Origin: a virus
Strand: one strand, 5' to 3'
IMG/VR virus record: IMGVR_UViG_3300049893_000164
Location: 1 to 43,533 of that record
DNA length: 43,533 nt
In this document: positions 4,403-38,736 of the stretch, piece after piece
Layout: the number at the start of each line of letters is the position of its first letter
Numbering within the stretch: position 1 is the first letter of the stretch
The notes under the pieces: generated by a model
What the model was told of the DNA's origin: nothing
The model's database searches: none
Seen by the model: the letters and a program-made list of their open reading frames with translations, nothing else
Program-made: the position numbers and the translations under genes

Positions 4403-4671
4403 GCGTCCTCCACAAGACGGAACCCGACGTCGCCGCTGCGGTTTCCGGGCGTATTGCGGTTGCGGTTCTCCGCGCGCAGGCTGACCGGATCGTTGCCCCA
4501 AGAACCGCCGCGAAGCACACGATATTTCGGTTCTATGCCCTCGACAAGACGGAACCCGTAGTTGGGGTTCCGGTACGTCGAGCCGCCCCTGATGCGGTTG
4601 GCGGAGCGGGCGAACTGGGGATTGTTGACCCAGGAAGCACCGCGCAAAACGCGCCATTTAGTTGTGCTCAT
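4399..4671 (-). CDS. C-terminal part of FGE/C-type-lectin-like protein with two tandem repeats
   Basis: From the ATG at 4671 (MSTTKWRVLRGASW) the frame holds two copies of the conserved C-terminal motif of the FGE-sulfatase (SUMF1) fold: RVLRGASW...RSANR...GFRLVE and RVLRGGSW...RAENR...GFRLVE, each about 38 residues. The positions between the fixed residues are mostly codons ending in C (GTC, TTC, ATC, GGC, TAC, AGC, GAC). This is the pattern expected where AAC codons have been changed at their adenines, as in variable regions of diversity-generating retroelements. The N-terminal part of the domain lies in the other frame upstream (4658-5128). The two overlap by 14 bases. Confidence 0.7.
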   Translation of the reverse strand: MSTTKWRVLRGASWVNNPQFARSANRIRGGSTYRNPNYGFRLVEGIEPKYRVLRGGSWGNDPVSLRAENRNRNTPGNRSGDVGFRLVEDA

Positions 4672-5128
4672 CTTGGCACCACTCCCAAATGTGTCCGCGC
4701 ATGTCGTATAGACCAAAAGCGTTAGGTTTCTTCAGTCCGACAGGATGAGTCGTGCCGTCGCTGTTGCCCCAATGCCAAGCAACTTCATCGATATTGTCGG
4801 CATATTCAATATCCCCTCCGGCTTTGGCGCAATATTCCCACTCAGCCTCGGTGGGGAGGCGGAACTTCCGGCCAGTCTTGGCATTCAGCCGCTGGATGAA
4901 CTCATACACGATATCCTCCCAACTAACCTGCTCCACTGGATGAAAATCGCCCTTGAAGTAGCTTGGGTTCTCCCCCATGATTTCCACCCACTCGCGCTGA
5001 GTTACAGGAAACTTCCCCATGCGGATGTTCTTGCCGGGGATTTTCACCATCTCGAACATCGGCGCTTTCAGACGCTCGATTTCAGCGCCGAGTTCTGCGT
5101 ATTTTGCTTCAAGTTCTTGTAGGGTCAT
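4658..5128 (-). CDS. N-terminal part of FGE/C-type-lectin-like protein, frameshifted, 156 aa
   Basis: A short coiled coil (LEAKYAELGAEIERLK) is followed by a SUMF1/FGE-sulfatase domain: MVKIPG, FPVTQREWVEIMGENPS, RLPTEAEWEYCAKAGG, GLYDMRGHIWEWCQDEHN, then a stop. In the family the next segment is RVLRGGSW, which lies in the +1 frame just after the stop. Removing one T near the TAA would join them into one protein of about 245 residues. The catalytic cysteine segment of true formylglycine-generating enzymes is absent, so a binding rather than enzymatic role is likely. The frameshift may be a mutation, a sequencing error or recoding. Confidence 0.75.
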   Translation of the reverse strand: MTLQELEAKYAELGAEIERLKAPMFEMVKIPGKNIRMGKFPVTQREWVEIMGENPSYFKGDFHPVEQVSWEDIVYEFIQRLNAKTGRKFRLPTEAEWEYCAKAGGDIEYADNIDEVAWHWGNSDGTTHPVGLKKPNAFGLYDMRGHIWEWCQDEHN

Positions 5129-7750: not shown

Positions 7751-9585
7751 TATCTCATCCTCAAAGTTATCTTCTCAATCTCACTCGCATAGTACGAGTA
7801 GTCGATGGGTAGTACAGCATCCTTCATGTCGTTGCAGACACAGACTGTCCATCCCTTCTCTACTGCGAACCTGCGCTCCTCTGTCTTACCCTTCAGTGGT
7901 GGCATGATCTTGGTCAGTGTCGCGCCACCCTTCGCCACATAGTAACGCGTGGTGTTCTGCTCCTGCCGCTCGTGTCCCTCGAAGCTAGTCACTAGGCGAC
8001 TGCCTCTCGGCACCTTGAGTCGTAGCATGAAGTCCATCTTGTCAGGCCAGTTCTCAAGAGTCTCAAGGATCGGTACGTCTTTGAGCAACACCATCTCTGC
8101 GATCTTGGGGATGACCAATGCTGACCCGTTCTGGTGCCACTCGATGTCGTACTCGTAGCAGCCTTTGCGTTTGACCCCTTTGGCGCTCTCTGCACAGTAG
8201 TTATTCACGTCCCGAATGAACATCCGTGTGTAACGCACATCCTCAAGCTGCATCCCTGTGACGCCTTGCCACCAATCACAGACCACTTTGACCTGATCCT
8301 CTTTGGATCGTTTCAAATATAAGCAAATCCCATCGGTATTACAAGACAAAATCTTCAGCCCCTCGATCTTCATCAGGTTCTCAGCCAGTAGGCACAAGAG
8401 AAGTTGCCCGTTCAAGGTGATGGACATGGTAAAGAGTGGGTCATAGAACACGGAGAACTTGTTGTTGCTGTCGCCATAAACCCCGTTGAGTGCGAGCTTG
8501 AGCATCGCGTTCTCTGCGGTGCCCTTCTTGTACCCGACTCGTCGCTCCTTGAGGTCTGCGTAAATCTCACAGAACTTCTCGCCCAAGTGTGCGGGTCTGA
8601 ACTTGTTATGGATGGCGAGGCTCGGGTAGTACGAGGTCACATCGAGGTCAAGGATATAGTTGTCATGGTCAGCCTCGATCACCTCGTTCTCAACGGAGCC
8701 ATGGATACCGCCGAGTCCGAAGACGAACGTGAAGCCATTGACTGTCGCAGTCACACCGTCAAAGACTCCCTTGGTCTCACGCACCACTTGCACCTTGAAC
8801 CAGTCGAGGATGCGCTGGAACTCAGGCTGCTCGAACTTGATCCACGGTAGGATCGCCTCCTCAAGCGCGATGGCAGGGCGCACAGTCTGCTTCGGCTTGC
8901 GTCCTGACTGACCGTACTCGTAACACTGGACTCCAGCCTTCTCAAGCTCCATGATGAAGAAGTTTTTACCTATCTTCGTGTCGTTATCGTTCATAAAGTC
9001 ACGGTCATACTTGGTGCTGAGTTCTTCACGGAACCGGATCATATCGAGTGACTTGTGATAGAACAACTTGGTGGCATGGACATCATGCGCGTTGTACTGG
9101 CGCAGCATGGCGATCTGTTCTCGGTTCAGGACTGTACCCACTGGGAACGGTAGGTCTTGCAGACTTTCCATCCTCATGTTGAACTCAAGCGCCTTGAGAC
9201 TCGTGGCGCGTGCGTGGTTGTCGAAGTGGTGGATCAGGTACAGGTCAATCTGCTCAATGTGACGATCTGACGGATAGACCATGTGTGCCCATCGGTTCTC
9301 GTCCTGAGAGAAGATGATCGCCTGTGCTTTGTCATAGAGCATCTTGGCACTGACATTGCCTCGCTGCTGGATGAACAGATGCGTCACAGGATAGTCGAAT
9401 CCGACATTGTTGAACCCGATCAACTTGGCTCTCTGCTGACTCAGCCACGCGAACCACTCCAGCAGTGCCACCGAGTCGTTCTTGAACTCGCTGATCTCGA
9501 AGCACCACTTGAGAGGGTAGTCCGCGTGCTCCGCTGACAGCGTGAAGCAGTTGGGGTATGTTTCAATGTCAAAGATGATATTCAT
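7750..9585 (-). CDS. Family B DNA polymerase
   Basis: A 611-residue replicative polymerase with 3'-5' exonuclease. Exo I FDIE (D6, E8), Exo II NNVGFD (59-64) and Exo III YNAHD (164-168) are complete. Polymerase motif A is DLDVTSYYPS (313-322), motif B KLALNGVYG (363-371) and motif C CNTDG (415-419). Motif C in most family B enzymes is DTDS; here the first Asp is Asn and the Ser is Gly. No terminal-protein-priming insertions are obvious, and priming is probably by the primase at 13781. The start overlaps the preceding stop (ATGA), and the TAG stop overlaps the VRR-NUC start. Confidence 0.93.
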   Translation of the reverse strand: MNIIFDIETYPNCFTLSAEHADYPLKWCFEISEFKNDSVALLEWFAWLSQQRAKLIGFNNVGFDYPVTHLFIQQRGNVSAKMLYDKAQAIIFSQDENRWAHMVYPSDRHIEQIDLYLIHHFDNHARATSLKALEFNMRMESLQDLPFPVGTVLNREQIAMLRQYNAHDVHATKLFYHKSLDMIRFREELSTKYDRDFMNDNDTKIGKNFFIMELEKAGVQCYEYGQSGRKPKQTVRPAIALEEAILPWIKFEQPEFQRILDWFKVQVVRETKGVFDGVTATVNGFTFVFGLGGIHGSVENEVIEADHDNYILDLDVTSYYPSLAIHNKFRPAHLGEKFCEIYADLKERRVGYKKGTAENAMLKLALNGVYGDSNNKFSVFYDPLFTMSITLNGQLLLCLLAENLMKIEGLKILSCNTDGICLYLKRSKEDQVKVVCDWWQGVTGMQLEDVRYTRMFIRDVNNYCAESAKGVKRKGCYEYDIEWHQNGSALVIPKIAEMVLLKDVPILETLENWPDKMDFMLRLKVPRGSRLVTSFEGHERQEQNTTRYYVAKGGATLTKIMPPLKGKTEERRFAVEKGWTVCVCNDMKDAVLPIDYSYYASEIEKITLRMR

Positions 9586-10037
9586 TTGACTCTGAGACTC
9601 CCACTGGCGTATCGCAAGTTGTTTTTCTTCATGGATATTCGAGTCTCAATACAGTTGTCCCTGACAATGTTATCAACAGTCGGAGTATTGCGAGACAGCT
9701 TCAACGCTCTTGAGAGTTTGCGATCAGCAGAAGATACATAGGCTTCAATCTGCACCTTGTTCTCAGAAGGTAGCAATATCCTATAGTTCCCATTGTCATT
9801 CTTGATATACATCCCTCGACCAAGAAGAACATTCCGAACATAGTCAATTGCCGCCATCTCCATGAGTGCCACAGAGTCAAGTTCTCGCTTCACTTGTTGG
9901 ATAGTCTTACCCTCGATTGAGGGCAGGGGCAGGTCAAGATGGTTGCGAACATCCTCTCCGAGAATCACTGCTCCATACTCCAGTTGCTTCTCGGAATCCA
10001 GTTTAGATAACAGGTCTTTACCGTCACGATTAGCCAT
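9582..10037 (-). CDS. Replication-block protein of unknown function, 151 aa
   Basis: The start is set at the ATG at 10037 (MANRDGKDLLSKLDSEK) with GAGGTG four bases upstream. It overlaps the preceding gene by eight bases. The longer frame to 10094 lies inside that gene. The protein is basic and helical (DRKLSRALKLSRN near residue 110). No domain is recognised. Its position directly before the polymerase, with an ATGA overlap, argues for a role in DNA replication or as a polymerase accessory factor (inference). Confidence 0.75.
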   Translation of the reverse strand: MANRDGKDLLSKLDSEKQLEYGAVILGEDVRNHLDLPLPSIEGKTIQQVKRELDSVALMEMAAIDYVRNVLLGRGMYIKNDNGNYRILLPSENKVQIEAYVSSADRKLSRALKLSRNTPTVDNIVRDNCIETRISMKKNNLRYASGSLRVK

Positions 10038-10626
10038 TTGACACCTCTGCTTCCGCACGACCGAACGTAGGACGAAAATCACCATAACCAACATACTTGG
10101 CGGTGCGAGTCACGATTGATCTGAGTCCTGTCAGATCAACCACGGTATCATCGAACTCGATAACAGTATCGAACTTCCATTTCTTGAAGATCGGGAAATC
10201 TTTTGCGACACGAATATTCTGCTGCGGGAGAATCTTACGATGGCGAAACATCGGGTTCATTACAACGTCGGTAATTGTCTTAACCTTATCCATCCCATCA
10301 TAATAGAGCTTCGCTTTATCGTCGGTCGCAAAGATACCGCCTCGCATCTTATCCTTCCCTACCTTAACGATACCGAAGGCGGCAGTGACAATCTGCTCAG
10401 TCAGCCAACGAGTCGGGACATAGACACCAATCTCACTGTCAAAATAAATCTTTGACTCCGTTTCAATGTTACCGAGTTCAATCAAGTCCTCCTCTGTTTT
10501 GGATTTCTTCGCCATGAGGGGTTTCTTCAATTTCGTGTAGCTATTGAATGGATCGACAGTCTGAGGATTGTTCTGGAGCAGATAGTTGATACCAGTGATG
10601 CTGATGTGGGCTTGTTGAATTGACAT
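10030..10626 (-). CDS. Conserved phage protein of the replication block, 198 aa
   Basis: Begins MSIQQAHISITGINYLLQNN after the repeated leader AAGGAGATTTACC. I recognise the pattern AHISITG...NNPQTVD...VPTRWL...GDFRPTFGR as recurring in phages, function unknown. The protein is beta-rich with a conserved C-terminal YVGYGDFRPTFG. It is the first gene after the repeat array at 10680-11155, so its mRNA probably carries the array in its leader. That makes it a candidate partner or regulated target of the array (inference). Confidence 0.8.
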   Translation of the reverse strand: MSIQQAHISITGINYLLQNNPQTVDPFNSYTKLKKPLMAKKSKTEEDLIELGNIETESKIYFDSEIGVYVPTRWLTEQIVTAAFGIVKVGKDKMRGGIFATDDKAKLYYDGMDKVKTITDVVMNPMFRHRKILPQQNIRVAKDFPIFKKWKFDTVIEFDDTVVDLTGLRSIVTRTAKYVGYGDFRPTFGRAEAEVSNG

Positions 10627-10679: not shown

Positions 10680-10725
10680 GAGTCCTAAGTGACTCGGGAC
10701 GCACCCTCGTTAGAAGATGCGACCC
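10680..10725 (-). repeat. Double-hairpin linker after pentamer run A
   Basis: Hairpin 1 pairs the 10-mers at 10725-10716 and 10705-10696 with one U-U mismatch and one G.U. Hairpin 2 pairs GAGUC with GACUC (10695-10691 with 10684-10680). This is the last linker before the leader of the gene at 10626. Its sequence differs from the other linkers while keeping the same fold. Confidence 0.7.
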
Positions 10726-10786
10726 GCGTAACTTTGCGATGCGGTGCTTTACCCTGTACTGTGGTGCCCTGCACTGCGTTGCTCTT

Positions 10787-10836
10787 GAATCAACCTAAGT
10801 CGACTCGGGTAGGAGACTGTTACCAATTCCCTGACC
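10787..10836 (-). repeat. Double-hairpin linker between pentamer runs B and A
   Basis: Hairpin 1 has GGU/ACC and GGGA/UCUC helices (10836-10834 with 10810-10808; 10831-10828 with 10816-10813) separated by a 2x2 internal loop. Hairpin 2 pairs GAGUC with GAUUC (10806-10802 with 10791-10787), using a G.U where linkers A and C have G-C. Run A begins four bases after it. Confidence 0.65.
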
Positions 10837-10898
10837 GCGTTAACTTTGCCTTGTTTTGCTTTGCATTGCTGTGCGCTACAGTGCAGTGCATTGCACTT

Positions 10899-10942
10899 GA
10901 GTCTAGTGACTCGGACTATCCCCTGTCACCAAGAGATAATCC
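10899..10942 (-). repeat. Double-hairpin linker between pentamer runs C and B
   Basis: Hairpin 1 pairs GGAUUAUC with GAUAGUCC (10942-10935 with 10920-10913), eight pairs including one U.G. Hairpin 2 pairs GAGUC with GACUC around a four-base loop (10912-10908 with 10903-10899). The hairpin 1 sequence is unrelated to that of linkers B and D, so structure rather than sequence is kept. Confidence 0.7.
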
Positions 10943-11003
10943 GCGTAACTCTGCCGTGCCTTGCATTACTCTACAGTACCATACGTTGCTCCGCATTGCG
11001 TTT

Positions 11004-11053
11004 GAATCAACCTAAGTCGACTCGGGTAGGAGACTGTTGCCAATCCCCTGACC
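11004..11053 (-). repeat. Double-hairpin linker between pentamer runs D and C
   Basis: Near copy of linker B. Hairpin 1 uses GGU/ACC and a GGGG/UCUC helix with two G.U pairs. Hairpin 2 pairs GAGUC with GAUUC (11023-11019 with 11008-11004). The AAGTCGACTCGGGTAGGAG stretch (plus strand) is identical in linkers B and D. Confidence 0.65.
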
Positions 11054-11115
11054 GCGTTAACTTTTCTGTACCTTACGATACGCTGCCTTGTGATGCCGTT
11101 CCGTGCGTTGCCATT

Positions 11116-11155
11116 GATGGTTTCCCATCCCATAGTCGCCTGTCACACGACTATG
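11116..11155 (-). repeat. Leader double hairpin before pentamer run D
   Basis: A perfect 8-base-pair hairpin CATAGTCG/CGACTATG with a 9-base loop (11155-11131) starts eight bases after the stop of the DUF2815 gene. Next comes a GATGG/CCATC hairpin closed by a GAAA tetraloop (11129-11116). This reproduces the hairpin 1 plus hairpin 2 plan of the later linkers with different sequences. Run D again begins exactly four bases later. Confidence 0.75.
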
Positions 11156-11162
11156 AACTAGG

Positions 11163-11849
11163 TTAGCCGAGGAACGAAGGAACGCCGGGGATACCTGGGA
11201 ACGGAGCCGGGGCAGGAGCCACAGCACCGAACACAGGAGCGACTGGCATACCCACTGGTGCAGCACCGGCTACCGCGCCGAACATAGCTGACGCATCGAC
11301 AACACCTTCACCGAACGGCTCACCGTCAGCCGCAAACTGGACAGCTACCAGATCAGCACGAATACCGATACCTGTGTCGTTCTGTTGGAGCCACGGCTTC
11401 ACGACCGCGTTGATGTAGCACCCGCCATACATCTTGCGTGCGATCATCTGACACGCCATCGTGTTAGCAGGATCAGTGGGACGACCATCAGGTTGAATCA
11501 TCTGCGGCATGTTCTTGCTGCTTGCCGAGATATAGACCTTGCCGGCGTAACCCTTGCGAACTTGGAAGGTCTTGGAATCGACCTTCTCCTCACCAGTACC
11601 ATAGCATCGCTGCTTCCGGTTAGCCTGAATCTGCTGCATCGCGTTGCCAGCGTTCTCAAGCCACTTCGCTTGCGCCAGCTTCGCGTACTGCTGCATGAAC
11701 TGACCGAACGCGGGATCATTCGGCTCCAGCAACAGGTCGCAGTTGTAGGTGACACGCTTGTTACCTGTTACCTTGTCGGTCTGAGTCTGAGGTTCGGCAA
11801 GGTGGGGGAAGGAAAGACGGGCGCGGGTAATCATAATGAGGTCTGACAT
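11163..11849 (-). CDS. DUF2815 protein, ssDNA-binding-like, 228 aa
   Basis: The start is the ATG at 11849 (MSDLIMITRARLSFPHL) behind the leader GGAGATTTACC. The frame extends 19 codons further but without a binding site. RARLSFPHLAEPQ near the start, a central YISASSKNMPQMI and KMYGGCYINAVVKPW are typical of DUF2815. That family is usually found beside phage polymerases and thought to act like T7 gp2.5 (family knowledge). The last 40 residues are Gly/Pro/Ala-rich (GAVAPAPAPFPGIPG), resembling a flexible tail. Its stop lies eight bases before the hairpin array. Confidence 0.88.
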   Translation of the reverse strand: MSDLIMITRARLSFPHLAEPQTQTDKVTGNKRVTYNCDLLLEPNDPAFGQFMQQYAKLAQAKWLENAGNAMQQIQANRKQRCYGTGEEKVDSKTFQVRKGYAGKVYISASSKNMPQMIQPDGRPTDPANTMACQMIARKMYGGCYINAVVKPWLQQNDTGIGIRADLVAVQFAADGEPFGEGVVDASAMFGAVAGAAPVGMPVAPVFGAVAPAPAPFPGIPGVPSFLG

Positions 11850-11859
11850 GGTAAATCTC

Positions 11860-13101
11860 CTAAGAAAGAAAAGAAGGAAGAACAGGGCTAAACATAGATT
11901 CGGCACTTGCTACAGCAGGGCGAGGGTCGGACTCAGCGACTACCTGCAACGCACCTTCGGACTTCTTGATGTATTCTGAAGCCATGAGTTTGAGTTGTCG
12001 TTCGGTCAGCATGACCTTCTCACCCTTCTTCTCCCAAGAAACTTTCTCAGCCTGTGCCGGGCTGATGAGTTTGGTTTGAAACAGCGCGGCCTTGGGAATG
12101 CCGAACTTCTTGAGCTTCTCTGCCATCACAGCCTCGTCATAGACCCATGCTCGACTACCACGACCCCTGACAGTCTTGAGTCCTGAGATGTTGTTACCAG
12201 CCTTGATGCGGTTCAGCGCCTCCTCCTCGGCCTTCTCAAGCATCTGCCGGATCAACGGTGCAGCAAGGATGATCTCCTTCAACTGCTCGTCGGTCATGGT
12301 GGAAGGGTCTTTATCAGCCGCTTGTTGAGCCACGTCCAGATTGGCGAACTCGATGCCACTGGCCTTCATTGCGGACTCAGCACGAGCGGTACAGGCTCCA
12401 GCGTGAGCACAGTATTTGCACTGTGAGTCACCTGGGACGTAAGGCGCGTCCGGTTTATCGGTCGCATCAGCCTCGTCCTTGAGTTTGTCAGCGTTGGACA
12501 GAAACTCGATCACCGAAGTCTCATACGACGAGACTCCCGGCATCCCCTTTAGCCTGAGCTTCGGCTGGATAATGGTGAGCCTGATCGTCTTGAATCGACT
12601 GATCGATCCATCAACGTAGAACGGACTCAGGACACCGTAGCCATACTGCTCAAGCTGTGGGTTGTTCTCCGCACTGACCACGTTCATACCGTCCTTGTAG
12701 TCGATCAGCTCAATCCAGTCAGGCCCGATCAATGTGACATCCACTGTGCCACTCATGTCGTCCCTACCCAACAGCAGTTTGGGATCGACCTTGCGCTCAG
12801 ATAGTACCTGGACACCGTTGGTGGCTCTGCCCCAGATGTAGTCAAGTGCGAACTGCACTCGCTCCACGCGATCAGAATCCACCTTGAACTCGCCATCGTG
12901 ATCGGTCAGCACCATGCCTGAGTAACAGACGGCAGGCAGACCCTCCTTGAGCGCCTTCTCGATGACGGTGTGGGTATGCGTACCATCGGTGGCTGCTGCA
13001 CCAGAGGCCCGCTCAGGGTACTTAGCCTCCTCGCGCACACTGGCAGGACACTTGCCCCACCTGTGCCGCGCTGAAGGACTCAGCTTCGCGTGGTCGCTCA
13101 T
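11860..13101 (-). CDS. DUF2800 PD-(D/E)XK nuclease, 413 aa
   Basis: Begins MSDHAKLSPSARHRWGKCP, the typical start of DUF2800 proteins. The nuclease core is visible as GTVDV (D121) and ELIDYKDG (D134-Y-K136), the PD-(D/E)XK signature also found in Cas4/RecB-like exonucleases. Three Cys (228, 231, 237) in CKYCAHAGACTARA may join a metal or Fe-S site. Phages carry it together with DUF2815 and a polymerase, and it probably processes DNA ends for recombination or replication. The start overlaps the preceding stop (ATGA). The TAG stop is 10 bases before the DUF2815 start. Confidence 0.88.
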   Translation of the reverse strand: MSDHAKLSPSARHRWGKCPASVREEAKYPERASGAAATDGTHTHTVIEKALKEGLPAVCYSGMVLTDHDGEFKVDSDRVERVQFALDYIWGRATNGVQVLSERKVDPKLLLGRDDMSGTVDVTLIGPDWIELIDYKDGMNVVSAENNPQLEQYGYGVLSPFYVDGSISRFKTIRLTIIQPKLRLKGMPGVSSYETSVIEFLSNADKLKDEADATDKPDAPYVPGDSQCKYCAHAGACTARAESAMKASGIEFANLDVAQQAADKDPSTMTDEQLKEIILAAPLIRQMLEKAEEEALNRIKAGNNISGLKTVRGRGSRAWVYDEAVMAEKLKKFGIPKAALFQTKLISPAQAEKVSWEKKGEKVMLTERQLKLMASEYIKKSEGALQVVAESDPRPAVASAESMFSPVLPSFLS

Positions 13102-37773: not shown

Positions 37774-38736
37774 GTGACCATTAGTTCAACAACCAACCGA
37801 GTGGCATATACGGGCAATGGTGCGACTACCGCCTTTGCGTTCGGTTACAAGTTTCTCACCAACGCAGACCTGAAAGTATATCAGGCTGGAACTCTCAAGA
37901 CAATCACTACTCATTACACCGTGTCAGGTGCGGGTAATGATGCGGGGGGTACAGTAACCTTTCTCACGGCTCCGACGAACGGACAGTCTGTTGTCATCAT
38001 CCGAGACCCTGCGCTGACGCAAGGTACGGACTTGGTGGAGAACGACCCACTACCGGCTGAGACTCTTGAGGACGCACTGGACAAACTGACCATCATTGCT
38101 CAACGCCTTGATGATCGCCTAGATCGTGCGGTGATCCTGAGTGACACGGAGACTGCTGCGATCACCTTGACGCTGCCGTCACCTGTGGCGGGTTATTCAC
38201 TGGTATGGAATGCTACAGCAGACGGCCTGGATAACTCAGCCAGTGACACTGTTGCAGATGCAGCCGCAGCGGCGGCAAGTGCTGCTGCCGCTGCGGCAAG
38301 TGCTGCTGCCGCTGCGGCAAGTGCTGCTGCTGCGCTGAGTTCGGAGGTGAATGCTCAGACTGCTGAGACAAATGCTGAAACTGCCGAGACGAATGCGGAA
38401 CTTGCCGAGGCCAACGCAGTGACAGCGAGACTGGCGGCAGAGGTGGCACAGGCAGCGGCAGAACTTGCGAAAACTGCTGCTGAAACTGCCGAGACGAACG
38501 CTGAGACTGCTGAGACGAACGCTGAAACTGCTGAGACTAATGCGGCAGCGAGTGCAACGCTTGCTCAGAATTGGGCGGTATCGACCAATATCGTTGCCGC
38601 CACGGATTACTCGGCTAAGCAGTATGCAATTGACGCGGCGGCGTCTGCTGTTACAGCCGCAGGATTTACAAATGGCGATTACGGTCTGGTGACTGACGCC
38701 GTGGGAACAACCTCTGACTATGGGACAGTGCCATGA
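37774..38736 (+). CDS. Tail fibre with T7 gp17-like N-terminus, 320 aa
   Basis: GTG start with GGAGGT. The first 150 residues (NRVAYTGNGATTAFAFGYKF...QSVVIIRDPALTQGTDL...EDALDKLTIIAQRLDDRLDRAV) match the N-terminal domain that anchors T7-type fibres to the tail. Then a low-complexity Ala-rich coiled coil and seven-residue repeats of type AETAETN. No receptor-binding tip of its own; the next gene may supply it. Confidence 0.85.
   Translation: MTISSTTNRVAYTGNGATTAFAFGYKFLTNADLKVYQAGTLKTITTHYTVSGAGNDAGGTVTFLTAPTNGQSVVIIRDPALTQGTDLVENDPLPAETLEDALDKLTIIAQRLDDRLDRAVILSDTETAAITLTLPSPVAGYSLVWNATADGLDNSASDTVADAAAAAASAAAAAASAAAAAASAAAALSSEVNAQTAETNAETAETNAELAEANAVTARLAAEVAQAAAELAKTAAETAETNAETAETNAETAETNAAASATLAQNWAVSTNIVAATDYSAKQYAIDAAASAVTAAGFTNGDYGLVTDAVGTTSDYGTVP
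38272..38334. repeat. 21-base tandem repeat, three copies
   Basis: Units beginning GCGGCAAGTGCTGCTG start at 38272, 38293 and 38314, encoding AASAAAA. Such in-frame repeats lengthen the fibre shaft and can change copy number by slippage. Confidence 0.85.
38479..38541. repeat. 21-base tandem repeat encoding AETAETN, three copies
   Basis: Three adjacent 21-base units encode the heptad AETAETN within the coiled-coil shaft of the tail fibre. Further, more divergent copies lie upstream near 38360. Confidence 0.8.

What the first reader, a model, noticed from the sequence alone, without database searches (positions are those of the whole stretch)
10680..11155. Array of four RNA units, each with exactly ten in-phase GYANN pentamers between double hairpins
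Seen directly: on the operon strand, runs at 11111-11062, 10999-10950, 10894-10845 and 10782-10733 each divide without a gap into ten 5-mers. Over 40 pentamers position 1 is G in 36, position 2 is C (29), T (9) or A (2), position 3 is A in 39, and positions 4-5 vary (AC, CG, TC, AG, CT, GA, TG...). Each run starts exactly 4 nt after a hairpin, and those four bases always begin with AA. Counting the hairpin's last base gives an eleventh pentamer CAANN. Each run ends in GTTA(A)CGC. A period of five rules out coding. Known comparison: TRAP binds about 11 NAG triplets spaced by 2 nt, that is a 5-nt register, so a ring-shaped or filamentous RNA-binding protein reading three bases in five is one model (inference). 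The alternation of constant structured linker and variable run also recalls guide arrays, with two informative bases in five. I know of no described element with this design.
Basis: partly seen in the sequence, partly recalled or inferred. Interest (0 to 1): 0.95.

Follow-up and report, generated by a model that had tools for sequence, protein, structure and literature searches.

The report
VIPR guide-RNA array in a phage
A virus of bacteria carries four small guide RNAs built from five-letter units, next to the gene for a CRISPR-like protein that probably uses two letters of every five to find and silence the DNA of rival viruses; this kind of system (VIPR) was first described in a 2026 preprint, and this phage has a version with different fixed letters.

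Summary
In detail: four runs of ten in-phase GYANN pentamers on the operon strand (28-29 of 30 constant positions for three runs, 27 for the first; never above 23 in shuffles of the window), separated by paired hairpins. It is not unexplained. The 198-aa gene just downstream (10030-10626) is a full-length homologue of the solved 'SUSP1 Vipr protein' (PDB 36pp), its AlphaFold model is a Cas7/Csm3-like RAMP fold, and the next gene is a Vap1-like accessory. The locus is therefore a VIPR system (PMC13142463), in which GGY/NN guide RNAs (vrRNAs) pair with double-stranded DNA through the NN bases only, skipping one target base between dinucleotides. The array is four vrRNAs; the hairpin pairs are their tails, supported by strong covariation. 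In this clade the constant triplet is GYA, not GGY: 16 Viprs form a 100/99-supported clade, all with GYA arrays. Repeat number is not fixed at ten in relatives. The TRAP-ring reading is not supported; the 'guide array with two informative bases in five' is. I could not find targets of the four guides or test the skip rule for GYA guides. The preprint mentions 'a related consensus' in a supplement I could not read, so GYA may already be on record.

The parts
11062..11111 (-). vrRNA1 variable run, 10 GYANN pentamers; NN = AC CG CG TC AG GC TC AG CA AA
10950..10999 (-). vrRNA2 variable run; NN = AT GA AC TG CT GA AT AG CG GA
10845..10894 (-). vrRNA3 variable run; NN = AT CT CT GC CA AT AA AA AG AA
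10733..10782 (-). vrRNA4 variable run; NN = AC GT GG CC GT GG AA CC TC AA
11004..11061 (-). tail 1: GTTAACGC, hairpin A (11053-11025), hairpin B (11023-11004); then AAAC before run 2
10899..10949 (-). tail 2: GTTACGC, hairpin A (10942-10913), hairpin B (10912-10899); then AAGT before run 3
10787..10844 (-). tail 3: GTTAACGC, hairpin A (10836-10808), hairpin B (10806-10787); then AAGA before run 4
   Evidence: near-copy of tail 1; its own fold within the whole array
10680..10732 (-). tail 4: GTTACGC, hairpin A (10725-10696), hairpin B (10695-10680)
11116..11155 (-). leader: two hairpins (11155-11131 and 11130-11116) before AATG and run 1
10030..10626 (-). vipr gene, 198 aa, RAMP (Cas7-like) protein, phrog_4652
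9582..10037 (-). vap (Vap1-like accessory) gene, start ATG 10037, overlaps the vipr stop by 8 nt
11163..11906 (-). neighbour: Enc34/Gp2.5-like ssDNA-binding protein gene upstream in the same orientation

Best explanation
The region is the guide array of a phage-borne VIPR system. Four vrRNAs are transcribed on the operon strand, each with ten GYA/NN pentamers and a structured tail of two stacked hairpins. Copies of the RAMP protein Vipr (10030-10626) are thought to coat the run, one per pentamer: the GYA triplet is held by protein and the two NN bases are exposed. The 20 exposed bases pair with double-stranded DNA as NN x NN x NN ..., one target base skipped between dinucleotides, so a guide reads a 29-bp site, and binding blocks transcription of a gene of a rival phage, satellite or prophage. 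Vap1 (9582-10037) probably assists. Shown here: array, tails, Vipr homology and fold, vap homology, clade-wide linkage. Inferred from the preprint's work on SUSP1: transcription, Vipr binding, DNA pairing, the one-base skip, repression. Not shown: the targets.
For: Vipr matches PDB 36pp 'SUSP1 Vipr protein' over residues 7-196 at E 2e-14, 1e-67 as a profile. AlphaFold model pLDDT 91, pTM 0.84; Foldseek's listed top 50 are CRISPR effector entries, mostly Csm3/Cas7 chains (E 1e-5 to 5e-4, TM mostly 0.45-0.58). phrog_4652 holds both the window protein and the phage wV8 Vipr, and wV8 has GGTNN runs on both sides of its vipr. 29 of 120 IMG/VR stretches fetched only by a (GYANN)7 pattern also encode a Vipr. 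The window vap matches the vap beside 11 related viprs; that of Vibrio phage 1.266.O matches phrog_5926, the family of wV8's vap. Tail hairpins: 94% of cells paired, 12 of 16 pairs with two-sided changes, covariation score 0.70 against 0.23 shuffled (0/500); 43 G-U against 5 A-C cells, so this strand is the structured RNA.
Against: The constant triplet is GYA, not GGY. No target was found for any of the four guides, so the skip rule is untested for this clade. The SUSP1-clade pseudoknot in the tail was not looked for by a dedicated method. No expression data exist for this phage. Vap homology to SUSP1 Vap1 is weak and partly transitive.
Confidence: 0.9

Rival explanations
1. The runs are binding sites for a ring-shaped or filamentous RNA-binding protein of TRAP type, acting as a sponge or cis-regulator of the downstream gene, with no DNA target.
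For: A 5-nt register of conserved triplets with 2-nt spacers resembles TRAP sites; the array lies directly before the vipr start.
Against: The adjacent, linked protein has a Cas7-like RAMP fold and is a homologue of Vipr. No TRAP family match in the 10 proteins scanned with Pfam. Repeat number varies from about 9 to 29 in relatives, unlike a fixed ring. NN positions vary freely.
Confidence: 0.03
2. The repeats act as DNA: an origin, partition or recombination site with half-turn spaced GCA motifs, used by the ssDNA-binding protein and exonuclease encoded upstream.
For: The array lies among replication and recombination genes, and DNA could also form hairpins.
Against: Tail hairpins covary and prefer G-U over A-C 43 to 5, which marks the operon-strand RNA. 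In viral relatives the neighbours differ but vipr stays.
Confidence: 0.03
3. It is a VIPR array by descent, but in the GYA clade the RNP reads its target differently (RNA targets, or another skip length).
For: The constant triplet differs from the experimentally tested GGY. No one-base-skip target was found.
Against: Same protein family, same 5-nt register, same accessory gene family. Target searches were weak (exact-match scans, unknown host), so the negative result says little.
Confidence: 0.08

Closest known systems
VIPR, type II (Escherichia phage SUSP1 / P. fulva prophage; PMC13142463)
   Same: Phage-borne vipr RAMP gene; long intergenic ncRNA array beside it; tandem pentamers with a constant triplet and hypervariable NN; structured tail; vap1-family gene directly downstream of vipr.
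   Different: Constant triplet GYA instead of GGY; tail is two stacked hairpins (13-bp A plus B); in this window all four vrRNAs lie upstream of vipr; Vipr is 24-28% identical to the two SUSP1-like sequences aligned (wV8, L065).
VIPRs of Listonella phage phiHSIC and Vibrio phage 1.266.O
   Same: GCANN runs next to a vipr gene 46% identical to the window's, with a vap-like gene downstream.
   Different: The last run lacks a double-hairpin tail; vipr sits in a different genome context (among structural genes in phiHSIC).
Class 1 CRISPR-Cas (Cas7/Csm3 RAMP backbones with crRNA)
   Same: RAMP protein predicted to polymerise on a guide RNA and display bases for pairing; array of several guides.
   Different: No identical repeats with contiguous spacers, no Cas family found among the proteins scanned; guide information is non-contiguous.
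TRAP with 11 NAG triplets
   Same: Triplets in a 5-nt register.
   Different: Different protein fold; variable number of repeats; function as programmable guide.

Membership tests
VIPR | Vipr protein: RAMP homologue with RRM core and G-loop | tested here: met
   Full-length homology to PDB 36pp; Cas7/Csm3 fold matches; conserved G-rich GxGDxRPxxG segment
VIPR | vrRNA of 9-16 tandem pentamers with a constant triplet and hypervariable NN | tested here: met
   4 runs of 10; the triplet is GYA rather than GGY, which the preprint allows for as 'a related consensus' without giving it in the main text
VIPR | Conserved structured tail after the repeat tract | tested here: met
   Double hairpin, strong covariation
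VIPR | Pseudoknot in the tail (SUSP1 clade only) | not tested
   Only nested structures were computed
VIPR | vap accessory gene next to vipr | tested here: met
   Conserved Vap-like gene overlapping the vipr stop; link to phrog_5926 through Vibrio 1.266.O; hhalign to wV8 Vap E 4e-4, probability 36%; direct BLASTP none
VIPR | NN bases recognise dsDNA with a 1-nt skip | tested here: inconclusive
   No convincing target in IMG/VR or 369 genomes; codon-phase test had no power
VIPR | vrRNAs are expressed and co-purify with Vipr | not testable with these tools
   needs RNA-seq and pull-down
TRAP binding site | TRAP-family protein encoded nearby | tested here: not met
   No TRAP family match in the 10 proteins scanned with Pfam; adjacent protein is a RAMP
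TRAP binding site | Fixed number of triplets set by the ring | tested here: not met
   About 9 to 29 repeats in relatives
CRISPR array | Identical repeats with contiguous spacers and cas genes | tested here: not met
   Sequence of the units; no Cas family among the proteins scanned
Rfam families | Match to any known RNA family | tested here: not met
   cmscan of the window, none at gathering threshold

The most novel reading that the evidence does not exclude
The GYA/NN clade is a distinct VIPR subtype that reads DNA with a changed constant triplet and a double-hairpin tail. The constant triplet has switched between GGY and GYA more than once in Vipr evolution, so GGY and GYA systems could be orthogonal, and guides may be as long as 29 repeats.
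Probability: 0.4. Interest if true: 0.7.

Novelty: new member of a known kind. Interest (0 to 1): 0.6.

Why it matters
VIPR is proposed as a phage-borne RNA-guided system older than CRISPR, and the main text of the preprint shows targeting experiments only on GGY guides. This locus and its clade give an independent, sequence-only confirmation that such arrays travel with Vipr proteins, show a second constant triplet (GYA), map the tail by covariation, and supply compact systems (200-aa Vipr, about 100-nt guides) with which to ask which part of the triplet the protein reads.

Tried and rejected
Blastn of the array against phages: no match. Single-sequence Vipr scan of IMG/VR: none. Rfam: none. 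Targets of the four guides as NN with one skipped base: exact 16-base cores in IMG/VR gave 43, 4, 25 and 2 contigs (guides 1, 2, 3, 4) with no full-length match and no convergence on one gene. The best was vrRNA3, 20 of 20 bases (NN0-NN9) against a small ORF in L194/L213/L218, which is near chance given the number of hits. Three guides in 369 genomes of the class of L177's genome, up to 2 mismatches: 7, 2 and 0 genomes, not clearly above the reversed-pattern control; vrRNA3 was not run there. Guides of Vibrio phage 1.266.O: guide 3 hit over 120 contigs, but most are terminator-like T-runs, so rejected as a target. All guides against the first fetched loci with skips 0, 1, 2 and 4: nothing above background. 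A guide-only codon-phase test of the skip rule showed no signal above shuffles for GYA (35/200) or GGY (124/200), so it has no power. Promoter scan: three weak matches on 1.5 expected. TRAP-ring and DNA-site readings were weighed and set aside.

Full report
OBSERVATION. On the minus strand the four runs at 11111-11062, 10999-10950, 10894-10845 and 10782-10733 each divide into ten pentamers GYANN exactly as reported. They score 27, 29, 29 and 28 of 30 constant positions; the best 50-mer in 200 second-order Markov copies of the whole window, both strands, scored 23. The whole array folds as RNA with z -7.7. Rfam has no match in the window.

NEIGHBOURS. Reading along the operon: exonuclease (DUF2800), Enc34/Gp2.5-like ssDNA-binding protein, the array, a 198-aa gene of phrog_4652 (function unknown in PHROGs), a 151-aa gene that starts inside the 198-aa gene's end, then DNA polymerase.

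IDENTIFICATION. The 198-aa protein matches one solved structure by sequence, PDB 36pp 'SUSP1 Vipr protein', over residues 7-196 (E 2e-14 alone, 1e-67 as a profile of 15 sequences). Its AlphaFold model (pLDDT 91) has CRISPR effector entries, mostly Csm3/Cas7 chains, as its listed Foldseek top hits, so the RAMP fold is supported independently of the sequence match. The preprint on this system (PMC13142463) describes VIPR: vipr plus vap genes and vrRNAs made of 9-16 pentamers in which a GGY triplet alternates with a hypervariable NN, followed by a structured tail. There, the RNP binds dsDNA through the NN bases with one target base skipped between dinucleotides, represses transcription, and natural guides point at satellites and prophages.

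THE ARRAY IS A vrRNA ARRAY. A pattern scan of IMG/VR for (GYANN)7, which knows nothing of proteins, returned at least 120 contigs; 29 of the stretches also encode a Vipr homologue. Others include simple GCAGA- or GCACA-type microsatellites. In the Vipr loci nearest the window the layout repeats: runs, then a double hairpin, then a short AANN-like stretch and the next run. Vibrio phage 1.266.O and phage phiHSIC carry the same GCANN arrays beside their viprs. Phage wV8 (a SUSP1-type Vipr) has GGTNN runs beside its vipr and vap.

TAILS. Seventeen tails from the window and five related loci were aligned; the seven folded singly all form a 12-13-bp hairpin A directly followed by hairpin B. On that structure 94% of cells pair, 12 of 16 pairs show two-sided changes, and the covariation score is 0.70 against 0.23 in shuffles (0 of 500) and 0.22 or less when slid. 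Hairpin A has 43 G-U cells and 5 A-C cells, so the structured strand is the operon RNA. A U-G pair (alignment columns 17 and 28) is invariant. The tails were cut by eye at the same anchor, so some bias towards the structure is possible, but the effect is large.

ACCESSORY GENE. The window's downstream gene matches the gene in the same position in 11 related loci. That of Vibrio phage 1.266.O falls in phrog_5926 (E 2e-5), the family of the gene after vipr in wV8. Profile comparison to wV8 is weak (hhalign E 4e-4, probability 36%) and direct BLASTP finds nothing. I read it as Vap1-like, which would place the locus nearest type II; the type itself was not tested.

GYA CLADE. On a tree of 43 Viprs, 16 including the window form a clade (support 100/99), all with GYA arrays; SUSP1-type, actinobacterial and Methylobacterium Viprs have GGY arrays. 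A few deeper viral lineages also have GYA, and the tree needs five label changes, two forced by well-supported branches. Loci were partly found by a GYA search, so the balance of labels is biased. L005 was labelled by eye. Whether the preprint's 'related consensus' (fig.

TARGETS. Decoded with a one-base skip the guides are: 1 AC-CG-CG-TC-AG-GC-TC-AG-CA-AA; 2 AT-GA-AC-TG-CT-GA-AT-AG-CG-GA; 3 AT-CT-CT-GC-CA-AT-AA-AA-AG-AA; 4 AC-GT-GG-CC-GT-GG-AA-CC-TC-AA. Exact-core scans of IMG/VR (analysed in 36, 49) and mismatch-tolerant scans of guides 1, 2 and 4 in 369 genomes gave only chance-level hits. Two guides of Vibrio phage 1.266.O were also tried; one hit mostly terminators. A codon-phase test on guides alone had no power, failing also on GGY guides. 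The host is unknown, so this negative result is weak. In the window the first pentamer is always GCAAY and the last NN ends in A, which may mean the ends are not free guide positions (inference).

HOW IT WORKS (inference from the preprint plus this anatomy). The polycistronic RNA yields four vrRNAs; hairpins A and B mark the unit borders and may guide processing or cap the complex; Vipr copies line up on the pentamers; the NN bases read DNA of competing elements and block their genes; Vap1 assists.

VERDICT. It belongs to a class made public in April 2026; the window adds a member of a GYA/NN clade.

Noticed in passing
L085:142-1260: Eleven GYANN runs of 8-11 pentamers, mostly separated by only 4 nt (GCCA), with no Vipr found in the stretch held; L019 has GGCA linkers of the same kind beside a Vipr. 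Perhaps the 'staggered' arrays of the preprint.
   Followed up: partly
L052:11308-11800: Runs of 27, 29 and 20 pentamers beside a Vipr, longer than the 9-16 repeats reported for vrRNAs.
   Followed up: no
window tails, alignment A3 columns 17 and 28: An invariant U-G pair within hairpin A in all 17 tails, where most other pairs covary.
   Followed up: no
L129 (phage wV8) 4762-4819 and 6155-6212: Features annotated only as repeat 'DR_4' lie beside the GGTNN runs flanking vipr, so they are probably parts of the vrRNAs.
   Followed up: no
L127:5001-5585: In phage phiHSIC the vipr cassette lies on the opposite strand within a block of structural genes, like a moron.
   Followed up: no
window 4658-5128: Gene matching the FGE-sulfatase (formylglycine-generating enzyme-like) domain, E 3e-23, downstream of the replication genes.
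   Followed up: no
window 38272-38537: 21-bp tandem repeats (7 codons) within the ORF at 37774-38736, a heptad-like pattern.
   Followed up: no
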